34,102 nucleotides of DNA, from NCBI GenBank assembly GCA_017481925.1, contig JAFUOK010000019.1, positions 1 through 34,102 on the forward strand. Direction: 5' to 3'. Position numbers and translations under genes: made by a program. The stretch is from Alistipes sp. (GTDB lineage: Bacteria; Bacteroidota; Bacteroidia; Bacteroidales; Rikenellaceae). This document shows, piece after piece, positions 22,650 to 28,377 of this stretch. Under the pieces are notes generated by a model, which was not told the DNA's origin, searched no databases, and was given only the letters and a program-made list of their open reading frames with translations. Every line of letters begins with the position of its first letter. The first letter of the stretch is position 1.

Positions 22650-22775
22650 ATGAATAAGGGAAGAAACATATCTCCGTCGCACGCGACATCATGCGTTGTC
22701 AAGCAATCGGATTGTTGTTTTCGCTTATTCGTTATTGATTCTCAGAACGACGTTAATACTGTTTTTAATTGTTAA
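22650..22775 (+). CDS. Putative pyr operon leader peptide, 41 residues
   Basis: An ATG-to-TAA frame (start MNKGRNISPSHATSCVVKQS) lies wholly within the presumed leader, starting about 14 bases after the predicted transcription start and ending 6 bases before the terminator stem. The peptide is Cys-rich (5 of 41) and resembles nothing I know. Its second half is encoded by U-rich RNA. Size and placement match the pyrBI leader ORF of E. coli (44 codons), whose translation prevents termination when UTP is scarce. That the frame is translated is an inference. A second ATG (22640) upstream gives only a 5-codon frame. Confidence 0.45.
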   Translation: MNKGRNISPSHATSCVVKQSDCCFRLFVIDSQNDVNTVFNC

Positions 22776-22781
22776 TATATG

Positions 22782-22805
22782 GGCGACTGTTTGGTCGCCT
22801 TTTTT
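22782..22805 (+). terminator. Attenuator-type terminator just before pyrC
   Basis: Perfect stem GGCGAC (22782-22787) with GTCGCC (22794-22799), six-base loop TGTTTG, then six T (22800-22805). It ends five bases before the pyrC ATG and lies downstream of the operon's -7 box, as an attenuator would. The arms could alternatively pair with GTCGC (22676-22680) and GCGAC (22683-22687) in the leader. It could instead simply end the receptor transcript, whose stop codon is 233 bases upstream. Confidence 0.8.
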
Positions 22806-22810
22806 ATGAT

Positions 22811-24088
22811 ATGAACACAAACAACCGAATCATTCTTCGAGGCGGAACGCTGGTACACGAGGGCAAGCAGACGGTGGCTGATGTAGCTATTCTGAATGGC
22901 CGTATTGAGTGTATAGCACCCTCGATCGAGGCAACCGACAACGATAGAGTTTTCGACTGCACGGGTAAGATCATCACCCCGGGTCTGGTCGATCTGCACG
23001 TACACCTGCGTGAGCCGGGCTTCTCTCGCAAAGAGACTATCGCCACAGGTACAGCCGCAGCAGCACACGGAGGTTTTACCACCGTATGCTCTATGCCCAA
23101 CCTTGAACCTGCACCCGACACGATGGAGAATCTGCAGCAGCAGCTGTCAATCATCGAGCGTGACGCCGTAGTGAAGGTTCTGCCCTACGCCACCATCACT
23201 CGCAAGCGTCGTGGCGATGAGTTGGTAGATTTCTCTGCGCTCAAACCATACGTTGCAGGCTTCTCGGATGATGGCAGCGGCGTACATAGCGGAGAGGTTA
23301 TGCAGGCAGCTATGTACGAGGCGGCAAAGTGCGGCGGTATCATTGCGGCACACTGCGAGGTGAATGAGCTTCTACGCAAAGGCTACATCCACGATGGCGA
23401 GTATGCCAAGGCGCACGGCCACCGAGGCATCTGTTCGGAGAGCGAGTGGGCGCAGATTGAGCGCGATATAGAGTTGGCAGCCAAGGCAGATTGCCGTTAC
23501 CACGTATGCCACATATCTACCAAGGAGAGCGTAGCGCTGATTCGCGAGGCGAAGCGTCGTGGCGTGAAGATCACCTGCGAAACGGGTCCCCACTACCTTA
23601 CGATGTGCGATCAGGATCTGCAGGAGAATGGCCGCTTCAAGATGAATCCCCCGATTCGCTCGGCCGAGGATCGCGATGCACTCGTTGCAGGCTTGCAGGA
23701 TGGCACTATCGACGTAGTGGCTACCGACCACGCACCCCACACCGCCGACGAGAAGTCACGTGGCTTGGAGCTGAGCGCCATGGGTGTTGTAGGTCTGGAG
23801 ACATCGTTTGCCGTGATATACACCAAACTCGTAAAAACGGGCGTCATCTCTTTGGAGAAGGCTATCGACGTAATGGCCGAGGCACCCCGCCGTATCTTCG
23901 GTTTGGGTGGTGGCTTGCAAGAGGGCGAGGCGGCCGACATCGCAGTATTCGACCTCGACGCAACCTTCACGGTTGATCCCACGACATTCCTCACGATGGG
24001 TCGCAGCACCCCGTTCGAGGGCTGGGAGTTGCAGGGTGAGTGTTGCCTGACGCTTGTTGATGGAAAAATTGCTTACGAAAAAAGATAA
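22811..24088 (+). CDS. pyrC: Dihydroorotase, class I type
   Basis: Cyclises carbamoyl-aspartate to dihydroorotate, the third step of pyrimidine synthesis. The predicted protein is 425 residues. Zinc ligands are visible in HVH (His63 and His65, DLHVHLREPG), in FSDDG (Asp153/154) and in TDHAPHT (Asp306-His307). The Asp in FSDDG fits the class I (Bacillus-like) form rather than the E. coli class with a carboxylated Lys. The frame extends upstream to 22769, but this would run through the terminator stem. The ATG at 22811 gives MNTNNRIILRGG, a normal N-terminus. It is the first gene of the operon; carA follows after 25 bases. Aspartate carbamoyltransferase (pyrB) is not in the window. Confidence 0.95.
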   Translation: MNTNNRIILRGGTLVHEGKQTVADVAILNGRIECIAPSIEATDNDRVFDCTGKIITPGLVDLHVHLREPGFSRKETIATGTAAAAHGGFTTVCSMPNLEPAPDTMENLQQQLSIIERDAVVKVLPYATITRKRRGDELVDFSALKPYVAGFSDDGSGVHSGEVMQAAMYEAAKCGGIIAAHCEVNELLRKGYIHDGEYAKAHGHRGICSESEWAQIERDIELAAKADCRYHVCHISTKESVALIREAKRRGVKITCETGPHYLTMCDQDLQENGRFKMNPPIRSAEDRDALVAGLQDGTIDVVATDHAPHTADEKSRGLELSAMGVVGLETSFAVIYTKLVKTGVISLEKAIDVMAEAPRRIFGLGGGLQEGEAADIAVFDLDATFTVDPTTFLTMGRSTPFEGWELQGECCLTLVDGKIAYEKR

Positions 24089-24113: not shown

Positions 24114-25202
24114 ATGAAACCATTTACTAAAAAGTTAGTTCTTGAGAACGGTCGCGAGTTCCTCGGCTATGGCTATGGAGCCAACGTGGAGCGTGTGTGC
24201 GACATCGTTTTCAACACTTCTGTGGTGGGTTATCAGGAGATTCTCTCTGACCCATCGTGCAGCAATCAGATTGTCGTTATGGCCTATCCGCTGATTGGCA
24301 ACTACGGCATCACCGACGAGGACTTCGAGTCGAAGACCCCGCAGATTGGCGGTATGGTGGTGCGTGAGTGCAACGAGAACCCCTCAAACTTCCGTTACAC
24401 CAAAACCTTCTCGGAAACCTTGGAGGAGGCTGGCATCCCCTGCATCGCAGGTGTGGATACCCGCATGATCGTTCGCATCATCCGCGACGAGGGTGCTCAG
24501 CGTGCCGCAATCGTGAATATCGACACCACAACGGAGGCTGCCCTTGATATGATTAAGAACACACCCCAGCCCACCAACCTGGTGGCAAAGGTGAGCAGCC
24601 GCAAGGCTTGGTTCTCTCGTACGCCCAACCACAAGTACGACATCGTAGCCGTAGATTGCGGTATCAAGCACAATATCATCCGTTCATTCACCAGCCGCGA
24701 GTGCAACGTAACGGTAGTACCCTACAACACCTCTTTGGAGGAGATTATGGCCTTCAACCCCGACGGTCTGTTCATCTCGAACGGCCCCGGCTCTCCCGAG
24801 GAGCTTACGGAGGTTGTGGAGTTGATTCGCTCGGCGAAGGGTAAGATTCCCATGTTCGGTATCTCAATCGGTATGCAGCTCATCGCCCTGGCTTACGGTG
24901 CGAAGGTTTACAAGATGAAGTGCGGTCACCACGGCTCATCGGCCGTTCGTACGCTCTCAACGGGTCGTATCGATATGACCTCGCAGAACCACGAGTATGC
25001 TATCGTTCCCGAGTCGTTGGAGGGTACGGGCCTTACCGTTACACACGAGAATGTATTTGACTCAACAATCGAGGGCGTGGAGTGCGCCGAGGATAAGATG
25101 TATGCTTTGCAGTTCCACCCCGAGAGTGCTCCGGGTCCGCAGGATTGCGCATATCTTTTCGATAAATTCATTAAACTGATGGAGGAGAAACAAAATGCCT
25201 AG
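24114..25202 (+). CDS. carA: Carbamoyl-phosphate synthase small subunit with Ser in place of the catalytic Cys
   Basis: A 362-residue CarA. The N-terminal domain is normal (VFNTSVVGYQEILSDPS, DTRMIVRIIRDEGAQ) and the C-terminal class I glutaminase domain has NGPGSPEE. At the nucleophile elbow the usual GICLGHQ reads GISIGMQ: Ser251 replaces the catalytic Cys and Met254 replaces the His, while Gln255 remains. The other triad residues are kept as His335 and Glu337 (FHPES). In the glutamine-binding loop the usual NHG reads NHE (Glu294). In E. coli the equivalent Cys-to-Ser change abolishes glutamine use but spares ammonia use, and vertebrate CPS I naturally has Ser here. I therefore predict an ammonia-dependent enzyme. 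The ATG at 24114 is chosen over 24054, which would overlap pyrC. The gene overlaps carB by 8 bases. Confidence 0.93.
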   Translation: MKPFTKKLVLENGREFLGYGYGANVERVCDIVFNTSVVGYQEILSDPSCSNQIVVMAYPLIGNYGITDEDFESKTPQIGGMVVRECNENPSNFRYTKTFSETLEEAGIPCIAGVDTRMIVRIIRDEGAQRAAIVNIDTTTEAALDMIKNTPQPTNLVAKVSSRKAWFSRTPNHKYDIVAVDCGIKHNIIRSFTSRECNVTVVPYNTSLEEIMAFNPDGLFISNGPGSPEELTEVVELIRSAKGKIPMFGISIGMQLIALAYGAKVYKMKCGHHGSSAVRTLSTGRIDMTSQNHEYAIVPESLEGTGLTVTHENVFDSTIEGVECAEDKMYALQFHPESAPGPQDCAYLFDKFIKLMEEKQNA

Positions 25203-28200
25203 AAGAACAGATATCAAGAAAGTGATGGTGATCGGTTCAGGTCCGATTGTCATCGGTCAGGCCGCAGAGTTTGACTATGCAGGTACGCAGGCGTGCTTGG
25301 CACTTAAGGAGGAGGGTTACGAGGTTATCCTTGTGAACTCTAACCCCGCAACCATTATGACCGATACGAACATCGCCGACAAGGTCTATATGGAGCCTTT
25401 GACGTTGGAGTATGTGGCAAAGATTGTACGCTATGAGCGTCCCGATGCTATCGTGCCGGGTCTGGGTGGTCAGACAGGTCTGAACCTGGCCGTGCAGCTG
25501 GCAAAGAAGGGTGTTTTGGATGAGTGTCACGTCGAGATTCTGGGTACTTCGTTCAAGAGTATCGAGGAGGCCGAGGACCGTGAGCTCTTCAAGGAGCTGT
25601 GTGTCCGCATCGGCGAGCCCGTTCTTCCTTCGATTGTTGTAAACTCTATGGAGGATGGTGTTAAGGCTGCCGAGGAGATTGGCTACCCCGTTGTGCTTCG
25701 TCCCGCATTTACACTTGGCGGTACGGGTGGTGGTTTTGCCGACAACGAGGAGGAGTTGCGTGAGATTATGCGCAACGCATTGGTTCTCTCTCCCGTACAT
25801 CAGGTTTTGGTTGAGAAGAGTATCAAGGGCTACAAGGAGATCGAGTTCGAGGTTATGCGCGACAAGAACGACACCGCGATTGCCATCTGTAGCATGGAGA
25901 ACATCGACCCCGTAGGTATCCACACCGGTGACTCTATGGTTATCGCACCGGCACAGACCCTTACAGACAAGGAGTATCAGCTCTTGCGTGGTAGTGCACT
26001 GAAGATTATCCGCGAGCTTAAGATTGAGGGTGGTTGCAACGTGCAGTTTGCACTCGATCCCCTCTCGTTCAAATACTACATCATCGAGGTTAACCCCCGC
26101 GTATCGCGTTCATCGGCTCTGGCATCAAAGGCCAGCGGTTTCCCTATCGCACGTGTAACGGCAAAGATCGCCGTAGGTCTTACCCTCGACGAGATTATGA
26201 TTTCAGGCCGTCCTGCCTGCTTTGAGCCTGCATTGGACTACGTTGTGTTGAAGGTGGCTCGCTTCCCCTTCGATAAGTTCAGCGACGCATCGAACGAGCT
26301 GGGCACACAGATGAAGGCTACGGGCGAGGTTATGAGTATCGGTCGCACCATCGAGGAGGGAATACTGAAGGCTATCCGCTCATTGGAGACAGGTGTTTGC
26401 CATATCCACAACAAGAAGTTTGACGACTGGACCTCTGCACAGATGTTGGACTACATCCGCAAGGGTACGGACGACCGCATCTACGCCATCGCACAGCTTA
26501 TCCGCCTGGGCGTTGATCTGCTCATTATCTACAACCACACCAAGATCGACATGTTGTTCCTCGAGAAGTTCAAGAACATCGTCGAGATGGAGAAGGTGGT
26601 AGCCGCAAACAAGGGTTGCATCGCAACACTCAAGGAGGCAAAGAAGATGGGCTTCAGCGATAAGTACATCGGTCAGTTGTGGGGCATGTCGGAGGCCGAG
26701 ATGTTCGAGTTGCGTAAGGCAGAGAGCATCTTCCCCGTATATAAGATTATCGACTCTTGCGCTGGCGAGATCGACACCTATGTACCCTACTTCTACTCAA
26801 CTTACGAGGCAGAGAACGAGTCTATTCGCAGCGACCGCAAGAAGATCCTTGTACTTGGTTCGGGTCCGATCCGTATCGGTCAGGGTGTGGAGTTCGACTA
26901 CTCGACCGTACACGCCATATGGACAATCAAGGAGGCTGGCTACGAGGCTATCATCATCAACAATAACCCCGAGACCGTATCAACGGACTACACCATCAGC
27001 GACAAGCTCTACTTCGAGCCTTTGACCGTTGAGGATGTAATGAACGTTGTAGAGCTGGAGCAGCCCGAGGGTATCGTAGTATCACTCGGTGGTCAGACCG
27101 CCATCAATCTAGCAGAGCCTTTGGCAGACCTTGGCGTGAAGATTATCGGCACAGGCATCGAGGCTATCAACAACGCCGAGGACCGCAAGTGCTTCGAGCG
27201 CATCATGAACGAGGTGGGCATCCCCCAGCCCAAGGCAAAGGCCGTGACCGACATCGAGTCGGGCGTTGAGGCGGCAGCCAACATCGGCTACCCCGTATTG
27301 GTACGTCCCAGCTTCGTGCTCGGAGGTCGTGCTATGCAGATTGTGGGTAACGAGGAGACTCTGCGCCACTACCTGCGCTCGGCAGTAGAGATTAACGAGA
27401 AGTCGCCCGTATTGGTCGATAAATATATCCAGGGTAAGGAGTTGGAGGTTGATGCTATCTGCGATGGCAAGGATGTATATATCCCCGGCATTATGGAGCA
27501 CGTAGAGCACACGGGTATCCACTCTGGTGACTCTATCAGCGTATATCCCACCTTCAGCGTAAGCCAGCAGGTGAAGGACACCATCATCGAGTACACCCGC
27601 CAGTTGGGCTTGGCTATCGGTATCGTGGGTCTGTTCAACATCCAATTTATCGTGGACGAGCAGGAGAAGGTATATGTTATCGAGGTGAACCCCCGTTCAT
27701 CGCGTACCGTGCCGTTCCTCTCAAAATCTACGGGCGTACCCATGGCAAAGATCGCTACGATGGTGATTCTCGGCCACTCACTCAAGGAGCAGGGTATCAC
27801 CGAGATTTACGGTAAGGAGAGCACCCGCTGGTTCGTTAAGTCACCTGCCTTCTCATTTGCCAAGATTCGTGGTGTGGATTCATACCTCTCTCCCGAGATG
27901 AAGTCAACGGGTGAGGCTATCGGTTACGACGTAAGCCTTAACCGCGCACTCTATAAGTCATTGCAGTCATCGGGCGTAGCCGTTGCGAACTATGGTACGA
28001 TCTTCGTTACCATCGCCGACGCCGACAAGGAGCGTGCTCTGCCCTTCATCCGTCGTTTCTACGACCTCGGCTTCAACATCGAGGCTACGGGCGGCACCTG
28101 CGAGTATCTGCGTAACCACGGCATCCGCACACGCCACTTGCGTAAGATCAGCGAGGGCTCTACGGAGATCTACGACGAGTTGCGCAAGGGTCACGTTACA

Positions 28201-28377
28201 TACGTCATCAACACCATCGACGTAAACCAGCACAGCACACGTCGTGACGGTTATGAGATTCGTCGTGCTGCGGCCGAGAACAACGTGACGCTGTTCACAT
28301 CGCTGGAGACCGTGAGCGTACTGCTCAACGTCCTGGAGGAGATTACATTGGGTGTTTCAACCATCGACGGCAAGTAA
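25195..28377 (+). CDS. carB: Carbamoyl-phosphate synthase large subunit
   Basis: Makes carbamoyl phosphate from bicarbonate, ammonia and two ATP. It is 1060 residues, close to the E. coli protein (1073). Two homologous ATP-grasp halves are visible, beginning KKVMVIGSGPIVIGQAAEFDY (from residue 4) and KKILVLGSGPIRIGQGVEFDY (about 549). Their ATP-grasp loops are FTLGGTGGGFA and FVLGGRAMQIV, and both have metal-binding EVNPR motifs. The C-terminal MGS-like allosteric domain (about 930-1055) retains EATGGTCEYL and KISEG, the region that binds UMP and other effectors in the E. coli enzyme, so feedback control is likely. The start codon overlaps the end of carA by 8 bases, as expected for subunits made in equal amounts. 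Confidence 0.97.
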   Translation: MPRRTDIKKVMVIGSGPIVIGQAAEFDYAGTQACLALKEEGYEVILVNSNPATIMTDTNIADKVYMEPLTLEYVAKIVRYERPDAIVPGLGGQTGLNLAVQLAKKGVLDECHVEILGTSFKSIEEAEDRELFKELCVRIGEPVLPSIVVNSMEDGVKAAEEIGYPVVLRPAFTLGGTGGGFADNEEELREIMRNALVLSPVHQVLVEKSIKGYKEIEFEVMRDKNDTAIAICSMENIDPVGIHTGDSMVIAPAQTLTDKEYQLLRGSALKIIRELKIEGGCNVQFALDPLSFKYYIIEVNPRVSRSSALASKASGFPIARVTAKIAVGLTLDEIMISGRPACFEPALDYVVLKVARFPFDKFSDASNELGTQMKATGEVMSIGRTIEEGILKAIRSLETGVCHIHNKKFDDWTSAQMLDYIRKGTDDRIYAIAQLIRLGVDLLIIYNHTKIDMLFLEKFKNIVEMEKVVAANKGCIATLKEAKKMGFSDKYIGQLWGMSEAEMFELRKAESIFPVYKIIDSCAGEIDTYVPYFYSTYEAENESIRSDRKKILVLGSGPIRIGQGVEFDYSTVHAIWTIKEAGYEAIIINNNPETVSTDYTISDKLYFEPLTVEDVMNVVELEQPEGIVVSLGGQTAINLAEPLADLGVKIIGTGIEAINNAEDRKCFERIMNEVGIPQPKAKAVTDIESGVEAAANIGYPVLVRPSFVLGGRAMQIVGNEETLRHYLRSAVEINEKSPVLVDKYIQGKELEVDAICDGKDVYIPGIMEHVEHTGIHSGDSISVYPTFSVSQQVKDTIIEYTRQLGLAIGIVGLFNIQFIVDEQEKVYVIEVNPRSSRTVPFLSKSTGVPMAKIATMVILGHSLKEQGITEIYGKESTRWFVKSPAFSFAKIRGVDSYLSPEMKSTGEAIGYDVSLNRALYKSLQSSGVAVANYGTIFVTIADADKERALPFIRRFYDLGFNIEATGGTCEYLRNHGIRTRHLRKISEGSTEIYDELRKGHVTYVINTIDVNQHSTRRDGYEIRRAAAENNVTLFTSLETVSVLLNVLEEITLGVSTIDGK

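What the first reader, a model, noticed from the sequence alone, without database searches (positions are those of the whole stretch)
24861..25124. CarA has lost the glutaminase nucleophile (Cys to Ser251): predicted ammonia-dependent carbamoyl-phosphate synthase
Seen: the codon at 24864-24866 is TCA, giving GISIGMQ where glutamine-dependent CarA proteins have GICLGHQ. Met254 replaces the His of the motif, and Glu294 replaces the Gly of NHG in the glutamine loop, while His335 and Glu337 remain. The frame is intact, overlaps carB by 8 bases and is otherwise well conserved, so this is not a decaying gene. Known: the C269S change in E. coli CarA destroys glutamine-dependent but not ammonia-dependent synthesis, and vertebrate mitochondrial CPS I has Ser at this position and uses ammonia. 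Inference: this organism feeds pyrimidine synthesis, and perhaps arginine, from free ammonia, which would suit an ammonia-rich gut-like habitat. The small subunit would be kept for structure or for gating ammonia.
Basis: partly seen in the sequence, partly recalled or inferred. Interest (0 to 1): 0.85.

Follow-up and report, generated by a model that had tools for sequence, protein, structure and literature searches.

The report
Ammonia-fed carbamoyl-phosphate synthase in Alistipes
Alistipes gut bacteria have repeatedly disabled, and in one branch deleted, the part of an essential enzyme that takes nitrogen from glutamine, apparently because they build nucleotides from free ammonia instead.

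Summary
In detail: codon 24864-24866 is TCA, so CarA residue 251 (E. coli Cys269) is Ser, in an intact carA overlapping carB by 8 bp inside a pyrC-carA-carB-pyrK-pyrD operon. It is not a one-off. Of 152 CarA read in the genus (GTDB Alistipes), 96 lack the nucleophile (Ser 32, Asp 32, Gly 26, Ala 3, Asn 2, Glu 1); 56 keep Cys-His-Glu. On a CarB tree of these and near relatives the non-Cys states form 7-8 separate inactivations, plus one clean carA deletion (pyrC-carB). One CarA was found in the window's genome (84% complete). Its CTP synthase has also lost Cys and His, its GMP synthetase lacks the nucleophile part of the glutaminase domain, and the only PurF-like protein found lacks Cys1; HisH and PurL keep Cys. 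The short GMP synthetase occurs in 52 of 100 genomes with non-Cys or deleted CarA and 0 of 56 with Cys. Best reading: CarAB here uses free ammonia, with CarA kept as a catalytically dead but selected subunit, as part of a stepwise move from glutamine to ammonia in nucleotide synthesis. Activity was not measured. My literature searches found no report of this.

The parts
24114..25202 (+). carA: carbamoyl-phosphate synthase small subunit, 362 aa, glutaminase nucleophile replaced by Ser251
   Evidence: (TIGR01368 430.9 bits, cut-off 307.35)
24864..24866 (+). TCA codon, Ser251 = E. coli Cys269
24993..24995 (+). Glu294 codon (E. coli Gly313, glutamine loop)
25116..25124 (+). His335-Pro-Glu337, rest of the former triad, retained in this genome
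25195..28377 (+). carB: synthase subunit, 1060 aa, tunnel-gate residues Cys232/Ala251/Ala313 kept (E. coli gate numbering recalled)
22769..24088 (+). pyrC, dihydroorotase-like amidohydrolase, upstream gene of the operon
   Evidence: PF01979, PF12890
28352..29119 (+). pyrK, electron-transfer subunit of dihydroorotate dehydrogenase B
   Evidence: PF10418, PF00175
29124..30050 (+). pyrD, dihydroorotate dehydrogenase
   Evidence: PF01180

Best explanation
The window's CarA cannot form the cysteinyl thioester needed to hydrolyse glutamine, so CarAB makes carbamoyl phosphate from bicarbonate, ATP and free ammonia that enters the synthase subunit directly. CarA is kept under selection as a structural or ammonia-guiding subunit. 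This is one step of a wider, stepwise change in ruminant-gut Alistipes: nucleotide enzymes whose synthase half can use ammonia (CPS, GMP synthetase, CTP synthase, apparently PRPP amidotransferase) lose their glutaminase, while HisH and PurL keep theirs. Shown: the residue changes, their recurrence, the carA deletion, the linked GuaA, PyrG and PurF changes, and purifying selection on carA. Inferred: loss of glutaminase activity, use of ammonia in vivo, and the role left to CarA.
For: Ser at the nucleophile. One CarA found in the genome. 96 of 152 genus CarA lack Cys, and 61 of those 96 have also lost His and/or Glu. 7-8 inactivation groups plus 1 deletion, loss taken as irreversible, in 32 of 32 bootstraps of the CarB tree (first tree). 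carA deleted with carB kept in 4 genomes, pyrC-carB gaps of 36-96 bp. PyrG of the same genome reads GVGLGMQ/NPE and GuaA is truncated, while HisH is intact; PurL intact in 8 of 8 genomes searched. Short GuaA in 52 of 100 non-Cys or deleted and 0 of 56 Cys genomes. GATase domain relaxed relative to the N-terminal domain: dN/dS ratio 2.18 in the window clade, 1.14 in the Cys set. Human CPS1 has Ser294 for the Cys and takes ammonia (PMC4655335 passages). Most amidotransferases, GMPS among them, can use exogenous ammonia (PMC10526850 passages).
Against: No activity data. The ammonia reaction of E. [quoted passage not shown] The multi-enzyme loss is patchy: PyrG is intact in 13 of 20 genomes read, 8 of which have a non-Cys or no CarA (G061, G068, G070, G094, G109, G129, G130, G164); GuaA is full length in G094, G109, G129 and G164. 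48 of 100 non-Cys or deleted genomes do not show the short GuaA. The GuaA association is not corrected for phylogeny. The Gly genome G164 has a second, intact CarA-CarB pair. The window's genome is 84% complete, so a missed second CarA cannot be fully excluded.
Confidence: 0.82

Rival explanations
1. Free ammonia is not the true donor: another glutaminase or deaminase in the cell hands ammonia to CarAB, so glutamine is still the source, indirectly.
For: The cell has not given up glutamine altogether: HisH and PurL glutaminases keep their Cys.
Against: No candidate partner lies in the operon. The carA-deleted lineage keeps carB without any small subunit. In the window's genome two, perhaps three, other amidotransferases lost the same function. 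I did not search the genome for free-standing glutaminases.
Confidence: 0.1
2. The Ser acts as a weak nucleophile and CarA still hydrolyses glutamine slowly.
For: His335, Glu337, Gln255 and Asn292 remain in the window protein.
Against: Relatives have Ala, Gly, Asp, Asn or Glu at the site and often lack His/Glu as well. One lineage deleted carA. Human CPS1 with Ser at this site does not use glutamine (PMC4655335 passages).
Confidence: 0.04
3. The operon is on its way out and pyrimidines are salvaged.
For: CTP synthase was not found in 4 relatives (G072, G020, G073, G089), so some members may depend on salvage.
Against: carA and carB are intact and under purifying selection; pyrC, pyrK and pyrD are present in the operon and PyrB elsewhere in the genome; carB is kept even where carA is gone. 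pyrE and pyrF were not searched for.
Confidence: 0.04

Closest known systems
Vertebrate mitochondrial CPS I (human CPS1)
   Same: Inactive glutaminase-like domain kept, catalytic Cys replaced by Ser (Ser294), takes ammonia from outside (PMC4655335 passages).
   Different: CPS1 is one fused chain, needs N-acetylglutamate and serves urea synthesis; here it is a two-gene bacterial enzyme in a pyrimidine operon, the nucleophile was lost 7-8 times in one genus and its near relatives, and carA was deleted once.
E. coli CarAB (glutamine-dependent CPS II)
   Same: Same two-subunit architecture; CarA and CarB are clear homologues over their length.
   Different: E. coli uses Cys269 and His353 for glutamine hydrolysis; its ammonia reaction is thought likely physiologically irrelevant (PMC6245113 passages).
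Oreochromis (Alcolapia) CPS III and frog CPS I
   Same: Proposed convergent shift of a CPS from glutamine to ammonia (PMC7657897 passages).
   Different: There the triad is kept and a glutamine-binding residue is lost; here the nucleophile itself is lost.
Single-domain, ammonia-dependent NAD synthetases
   Same: Amidating enzymes without a glutaminase domain that use ammonia in vivo (PMC3376133 abstract).
   Different: There the glutaminase-less form is considered ancestral; here the loss is secondary.
Small CPS of Methanobrevibacter smithii
   Same: A gut microbe whose 41 kDa CPS corresponds to the synthetase domains only (PMC6022934 passage; that it has no glutaminase part is my reading of that passage).
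   Different: A dimeric minimal CPS, not a CarAB whose CarA was disabled.

Membership tests
Glutamine-hydrolysing CPS small subunit (CarA, TIGR01368) | Sequence family membership above the curated cut-off | tested here: met
   430.9 bits, cut-off 307.35
Glutamine-hydrolysing CPS small subunit (CarA, TIGR01368) | Catalytic cysteine of the class I glutaminase triad | tested here: not met
   Ser251 at E. coli Cys269
Glutamine-hydrolysing CPS small subunit (CarA, TIGR01368) | His and Glu of the triad | tested here: met
   His335, Glu337; one or both lost in 61 of 96 non-Cys relatives
Glutamine-hydrolysing CPS small subunit (CarA, TIGR01368) | Glutamine-dependent activity | not testable with these tools
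   needs an enzyme assay
CPS I (ammonia-dependent CPS of ureotelic vertebrates) | Ser in place of the catalytic Cys, glutaminase-like domain kept | tested here: met
CPS I (ammonia-dependent CPS of ureotelic vertebrates) | Glutaminase-like and synthase parts fused in one chain | tested here: not met
   two genes, carA and carB; so it may work like CPS I but is not a member
CPS I (ammonia-dependent CPS of ureotelic vertebrates) | N-acetylglutamate as essential activator; ammonia as only nitrogen donor | not testable with these tools
   needs kinetics
CPS synthase subunit CarB (TIGR01369) | Full-length synthase above cut-off, with tunnel-gate residues | tested here: met
   1456 bits, cut-off 1027; Cys232/Ala251/Ala313 present

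The most novel reading that the evidence does not exclude
A bacterial lineage has stepped away from glutamine as the nitrogen donor for nucleotides: carbamoyl phosphate, GMP, CTP and possibly phosphoribosylamine are made from free ammonia, by repeated and independent loss of glutaminase sites, a GuaA without a working glutaminase domain, and in one branch deletion of carA. Glutaminases are kept only in the enzymes that cannot do without them.
Probability: 0.6. Interest if true: 0.9.

Novelty: new variant of a known kind. Interest (0 to 1): 0.78.

Why it matters
Textbook bacterial CPS is a glutamine enzyme with a tunnel that protects ammonia. Here nature has run the disabling experiment several times in one genus and its kin, with different residues, and once to full loss of the glutaminase subunit. 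That gives a natural series for asking what CarA does apart from making ammonia, how a synthase subunit adapts to free ammonia, and how ammonia-rich gut habitats shape core metabolism. It also means that family-based annotation would call such proteins 'glutamine-hydrolysing', probably wrongly, and that glutamine-analogue inhibitors should act differently on these bacteria.

Tried and rejected
Considered and rejected: sequencing or assembly error (near relatives from separate assemblies share the state); pseudogene (dN/dS about 0.06 against G010); a second carA in this genome (none found); Glu294 as key evidence (column variable in Cys relatives). For GuaA I cannot tell whether the short form arose by erosion in place or by gain of an already short gene. 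CarB sites that change in several loss groups (258, 266, 316) lie in the N-terminal half, but E. coli itself has Asp at 258 and Phe at the place of 316, so I do not use them as proof; only the carA-deleted group shows a significant N-half excess, the other nine groups do not. Rows dropped: 3 CarA with stops in the aligned stretch (G127, G069, G145) from the conservation and dN/dS counts; 9 of the 161 genomes with a CarA hit were not listed and not fetched; in all 24 of 180 genus genomes have no CarA state; 158 loci with both genes full length were reduced to 152 distinct CarB; 3 CarB of unknown CarA state were left out. The structure prediction planned for CarA could not be run.

Full report
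OBSERVATION. carA is 24114-25202 (362 aa) and carB 25195-28377 (1060 aa), overlapping by 8 bases. Codon 251 (24864-24866) is TCA, Ser. In the alignment to the E. coli small subunit it falls on residue 269, and the best solved relative, 1c30/1c3o, carries Ser at that position as well (that this is the engineered C269S protein is recalled). His335, Glu337, Gln255 and Asn292 remain; His272 of E. coli is Met254 and Gly313 is Glu294. The protein scores far above the cut-off of the glutamine-hydrolysing CarA family (430.9 against 307.35 bits), so family-based annotation would call it glutamine-dependent. The genes lie in a pyrC-carA-carB-pyrK-pyrD run. A single CarA was found in the genome (1.9 Mb, 78 contigs, 84% complete).

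WHO IT IS. The nearest named relatives (94-96% identical CarA, L056 and L057) are Alistipes sp. metagenome assemblies. Of the 18 named records at 74-96% identity (L056-L073, all Ser or Ala), 15 state a ruminant cecum, colon or rectum (yak, cattle, goat, sheep, buffalo, roe deer, water deer) and 3 state no host. The CarA of this genus is about 60% identical to CarA of Clostridia but only 39-42% to those found in the other families of the order (11 of 16 such genomes gave a full-length hit), which suggests an old transfer of the pyr genes (inference).

RECURRENCE. 161 of 180 genus genomes have a CarA hit; I read the residue in 152 of them (loci; tallied): Cys 56, Ser 32, Asp 32, Gly 26, Ala 3, Asn 2, Glu 1. 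All 56 Cys proteins keep Cys-His-Glu. Of the 96 others, 35 keep His and Glu and 61 have lost one or both (for example HPE to QPD in the Asp group). Of the 80 named loci, 53 have Cys, among them every record titled Clostridia, Eubacterium, Ruminococcaceae or Porphyromonadaceae; the 27 others are all Alistipes, Rikenellaceae or Tidjanibacter. On a CarB tree (159 tips, genus members plus such relatives), which does not use CarA, the non-Cys states fall in separate groups next to Cys tips. Rooted on Clostridia and treating loss as irreversible, the full data (156 tips) give 7 inactivation groups and 1 deletion group; 32 bootstraps give 8 inactivations (24 of 32) or 7 (8 of 32), with one deletion group in 32 of 32. 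Two of the groups (Tidjanibacter type with L110, and L079) are not among the genus genomes searched.

DELETION. 19 genus genomes have no CarA hit; 13 of these have CarB. In four (G072, G087, G136, G139; 65-92% complete) pyrC is followed after 36-96 bp by carB, and in the one read further, L248, then by pyrK and pyrD: carA is gone. PF00117 finds no CarA in G072. Four more genomes (G018, G077, G094, G096) hold only a distant CarB (about 40% identical) and no CarA hit; in G094 PF00117 finds only GuaA and PyrG, and no carA stands beside its carB. The remaining five (L249, L252, L253, L254, L259) have carB cut by a contig end and are uninformative.

SELECTION. carA is not decaying. Against G010, dN/dS is 0.033/0.546 for the gene, 0.009/0.521 for the N-terminal domain and 0.056/0.595 for the glutaminase domain. 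Median dN/dS (domain dN over whole-gene dS) is 0.062 and 0.136 for the two domains in the window clade (217 of 300 pairs used), 0.076 and 0.125 in the Asp clade (531 of 595), and 0.156 and 0.179 in the Cys set (1446 of 1540). The glutaminase domain is thus relaxed relative to the N-terminal domain where the nucleophile is lost (ratios 2.18 and 1.65 against 1.14). Of 166 columns conserved in the Cys set, the only one at 0% in all three non-Cys groups is the nucleophile, which defines the groups; several others are mostly lost. I read this as a dead but still useful subunit.

SYNTHASE. CarB is full length, and the tunnel-gate residues (gate named in PMC4655335 by its CPS1 residues; E. coli numbers Cys232, Ala251, Ala314 recalled) are present in the window protein and in the non-Cys and deleted tips of the tree. 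Among 511 CarB columns conserved in 83 Cys tips, the carA-deleted group changes 17, all in residues 130-541 (286 of the 511 lie in 1-541; Fisher 5.7e-5); the carboxyphosphate and oligomerisation domains that CarA touches in E. coli (PMC6245113 passages) lie in that half. The other nine loss groups show no significant excess. Columns 258, 266 and 316 change in 6, 7 and 7 of 10 loss groups, not all of them independent; a Cys relative (L186) also has two of them, and the columns were chosen as conserved in Cys tips, so this is a lead only.

OTHER AMIDOTRANSFERASES. PF00117 finds five proteins in the window's genome. CarA has Ser. CTP synthase (L137) reads GVGLGMQ and NPE where intact relatives read GICLGMQ and HPE. 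GMP synthetase (L140) keeps a full synthetase part (TIGR00884 465 bits, cut-off 338.75) but only a stub of the glutaminase domain (TIGR00888 47.5 bits, cut-off 172.15, positions 1-75 of 188), with no nucleophile motif. HisH keeps GICVGMQ and HPE (TIGR01855 211.7 bits), and a fifth protein, which looks like a C26-type peptidase (my label), keeps a Cys in its motif. Over 24 chosen genomes, PyrG has lost Cys and/or His in G000, G010, G014, G099, G003, G015 and G121 (7 of the 20 with a PyrG hit) and is intact in 13, of which 8 have a non-Cys or no CarA. HisH keeps Cys in the 6 genomes read, PurL keeps GICNGFQ in 8 of 8 and GlmS its N-terminal Cys in the 3 of 8 where it was found. PurF keeps Cys and GHVRY in G068, G044 and G023; keeps Cys but reads GHVLY in G130; and has lost the N-terminal Cys in G072 and G099. 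In G000 and G015 PurL is followed directly by PurM, and the only PurF-like protein found begins MSGFFG, without Cys1; the G000 copy, cut by a contig end, scores 104.5 bits against a PurF cut-off of 350. That a Cys-less PurF paralogue is widespread in Bacteroidetes is recalled, so this may be an old paralogue and not a loss.

LINK. A search for the short GuaA N-terminus over all 180 genomes gives 60 carriers at 73-100% identity and no other match at E 1e-10. None of the 56 Cys genomes has it; 52 of the 100 non-Cys or carA-deleted genomes do; 8 carriers have no CarA read (Fisher 1.5e-13, not corrected for relatedness). Of the 48 exceptions 36 belong to the Asp/Gly clade (GuaA full length in the two members read, G109 and G129, and not found in G068), 4 to the Gly lineage of G164 (full-length GuaA, and a second, intact CarA-CarB in G164), and 8 are scattered. 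On the tree, short GuaA occurs in 6 of the 7 loss groups that lie in the genus (not in the Asp/Gly group).

MECHANISM. Without the thiol no glutamyl thioester forms, so ammonia must come from solution, as in human CPS1, where Ser294 replaces the Cys and external ammonia is used (PMC4655335 passages). Most amidotransferases, GMPS among them, can use exogenous ammonia (PMC10526850 passages; for CTPS and PurF this is recalled), and these are the enzymes whose glutaminases are lost here; those that stay intact argue that glutamine itself is still made or taken up (glutamine synthetase was not searched for). The weak point is affinity: E. coli CPS needs very high ammonia (PMC6245113 passages), so these enzymes should have a better ammonia Km, or the habitat and cell keep ammonia high. 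PyrB is present in this genome as a carbamoyl-phosphate sink (TIGR00670 347.5 bits); a second carbamoyltransferase, in G015 nearest to N-acetylornithine carbamoyltransferase (286.9 bits, just under the cut-off of 288), was found in 6 of 8 genomes searched (not in G000 or G068).

NOVELTY. Ammonia-dependent CPS is known in vertebrates, and a minimal CPS in an archaeon (PMC6022934 passages). I found no paper describing bacterial CarA with a lost nucleophile, carA loss with carB kept, or parallel loss across CPS, CTPS and GMPS in Alistipes in ten searches of the open-access library, of which I saw the listings; subscription papers are mostly not held, so this is not proof of absence. I call it a new variant of a known kind: it works like CPS I, is not a member of CPS I, and is a CarA by descent but probably not by catalysis.

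Noticed in passing
G072, G020, G073, G089: No CTP synthase N-terminal domain (PF06418) found in these four genomes (91-98% complete), while the other 8 of 12 searched have it; they may depend on cytidine salvage or use another route.
   Followed up: partly
L348/L349 (G014:C20:120388-121178): CTP synthase of this genome is split by one in-frame TAG near residue 35; the longer piece has GIGLGMQ and NPE, the same Cys-to-Gly and His-to-Asn changes as the window's genome.
   Followed up: no
L255-L258 (G077, G094, G096, G018): A distant CarB type (about 40% identical) with no CarA hit in the genome: possibly a second, separate route to a CPS without glutaminase subunit.
   Followed up: partly
L260 (G164:C1:209966-210490); G157, G193, G194: These Gly-CarA genomes have a second CarA match; the one read (G164) has GICLGN and HPE intact and lies next to its own CarB-like frame.
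   Followed up: partly
G000, G015, G072, G044, G023: GlmS was not found with two class II glutaminase families in these genomes although G099, G068 and G130 have it; amino sugars might come from ammonia through another enzyme.
   Followed up: no
L186 (CarB tree): A relative with intact Cys CarA, sister to Gly CarA species, already has CarB changes at 182, 266 and 316: perhaps an intermediate state.
   Followed up: no
window 24114-25202: CarA of this genus is closer to Clostridia (about 60%) than to other families of its order (39-42%), suggesting horizontal transfer of the pyr genes.
   Followed up: no
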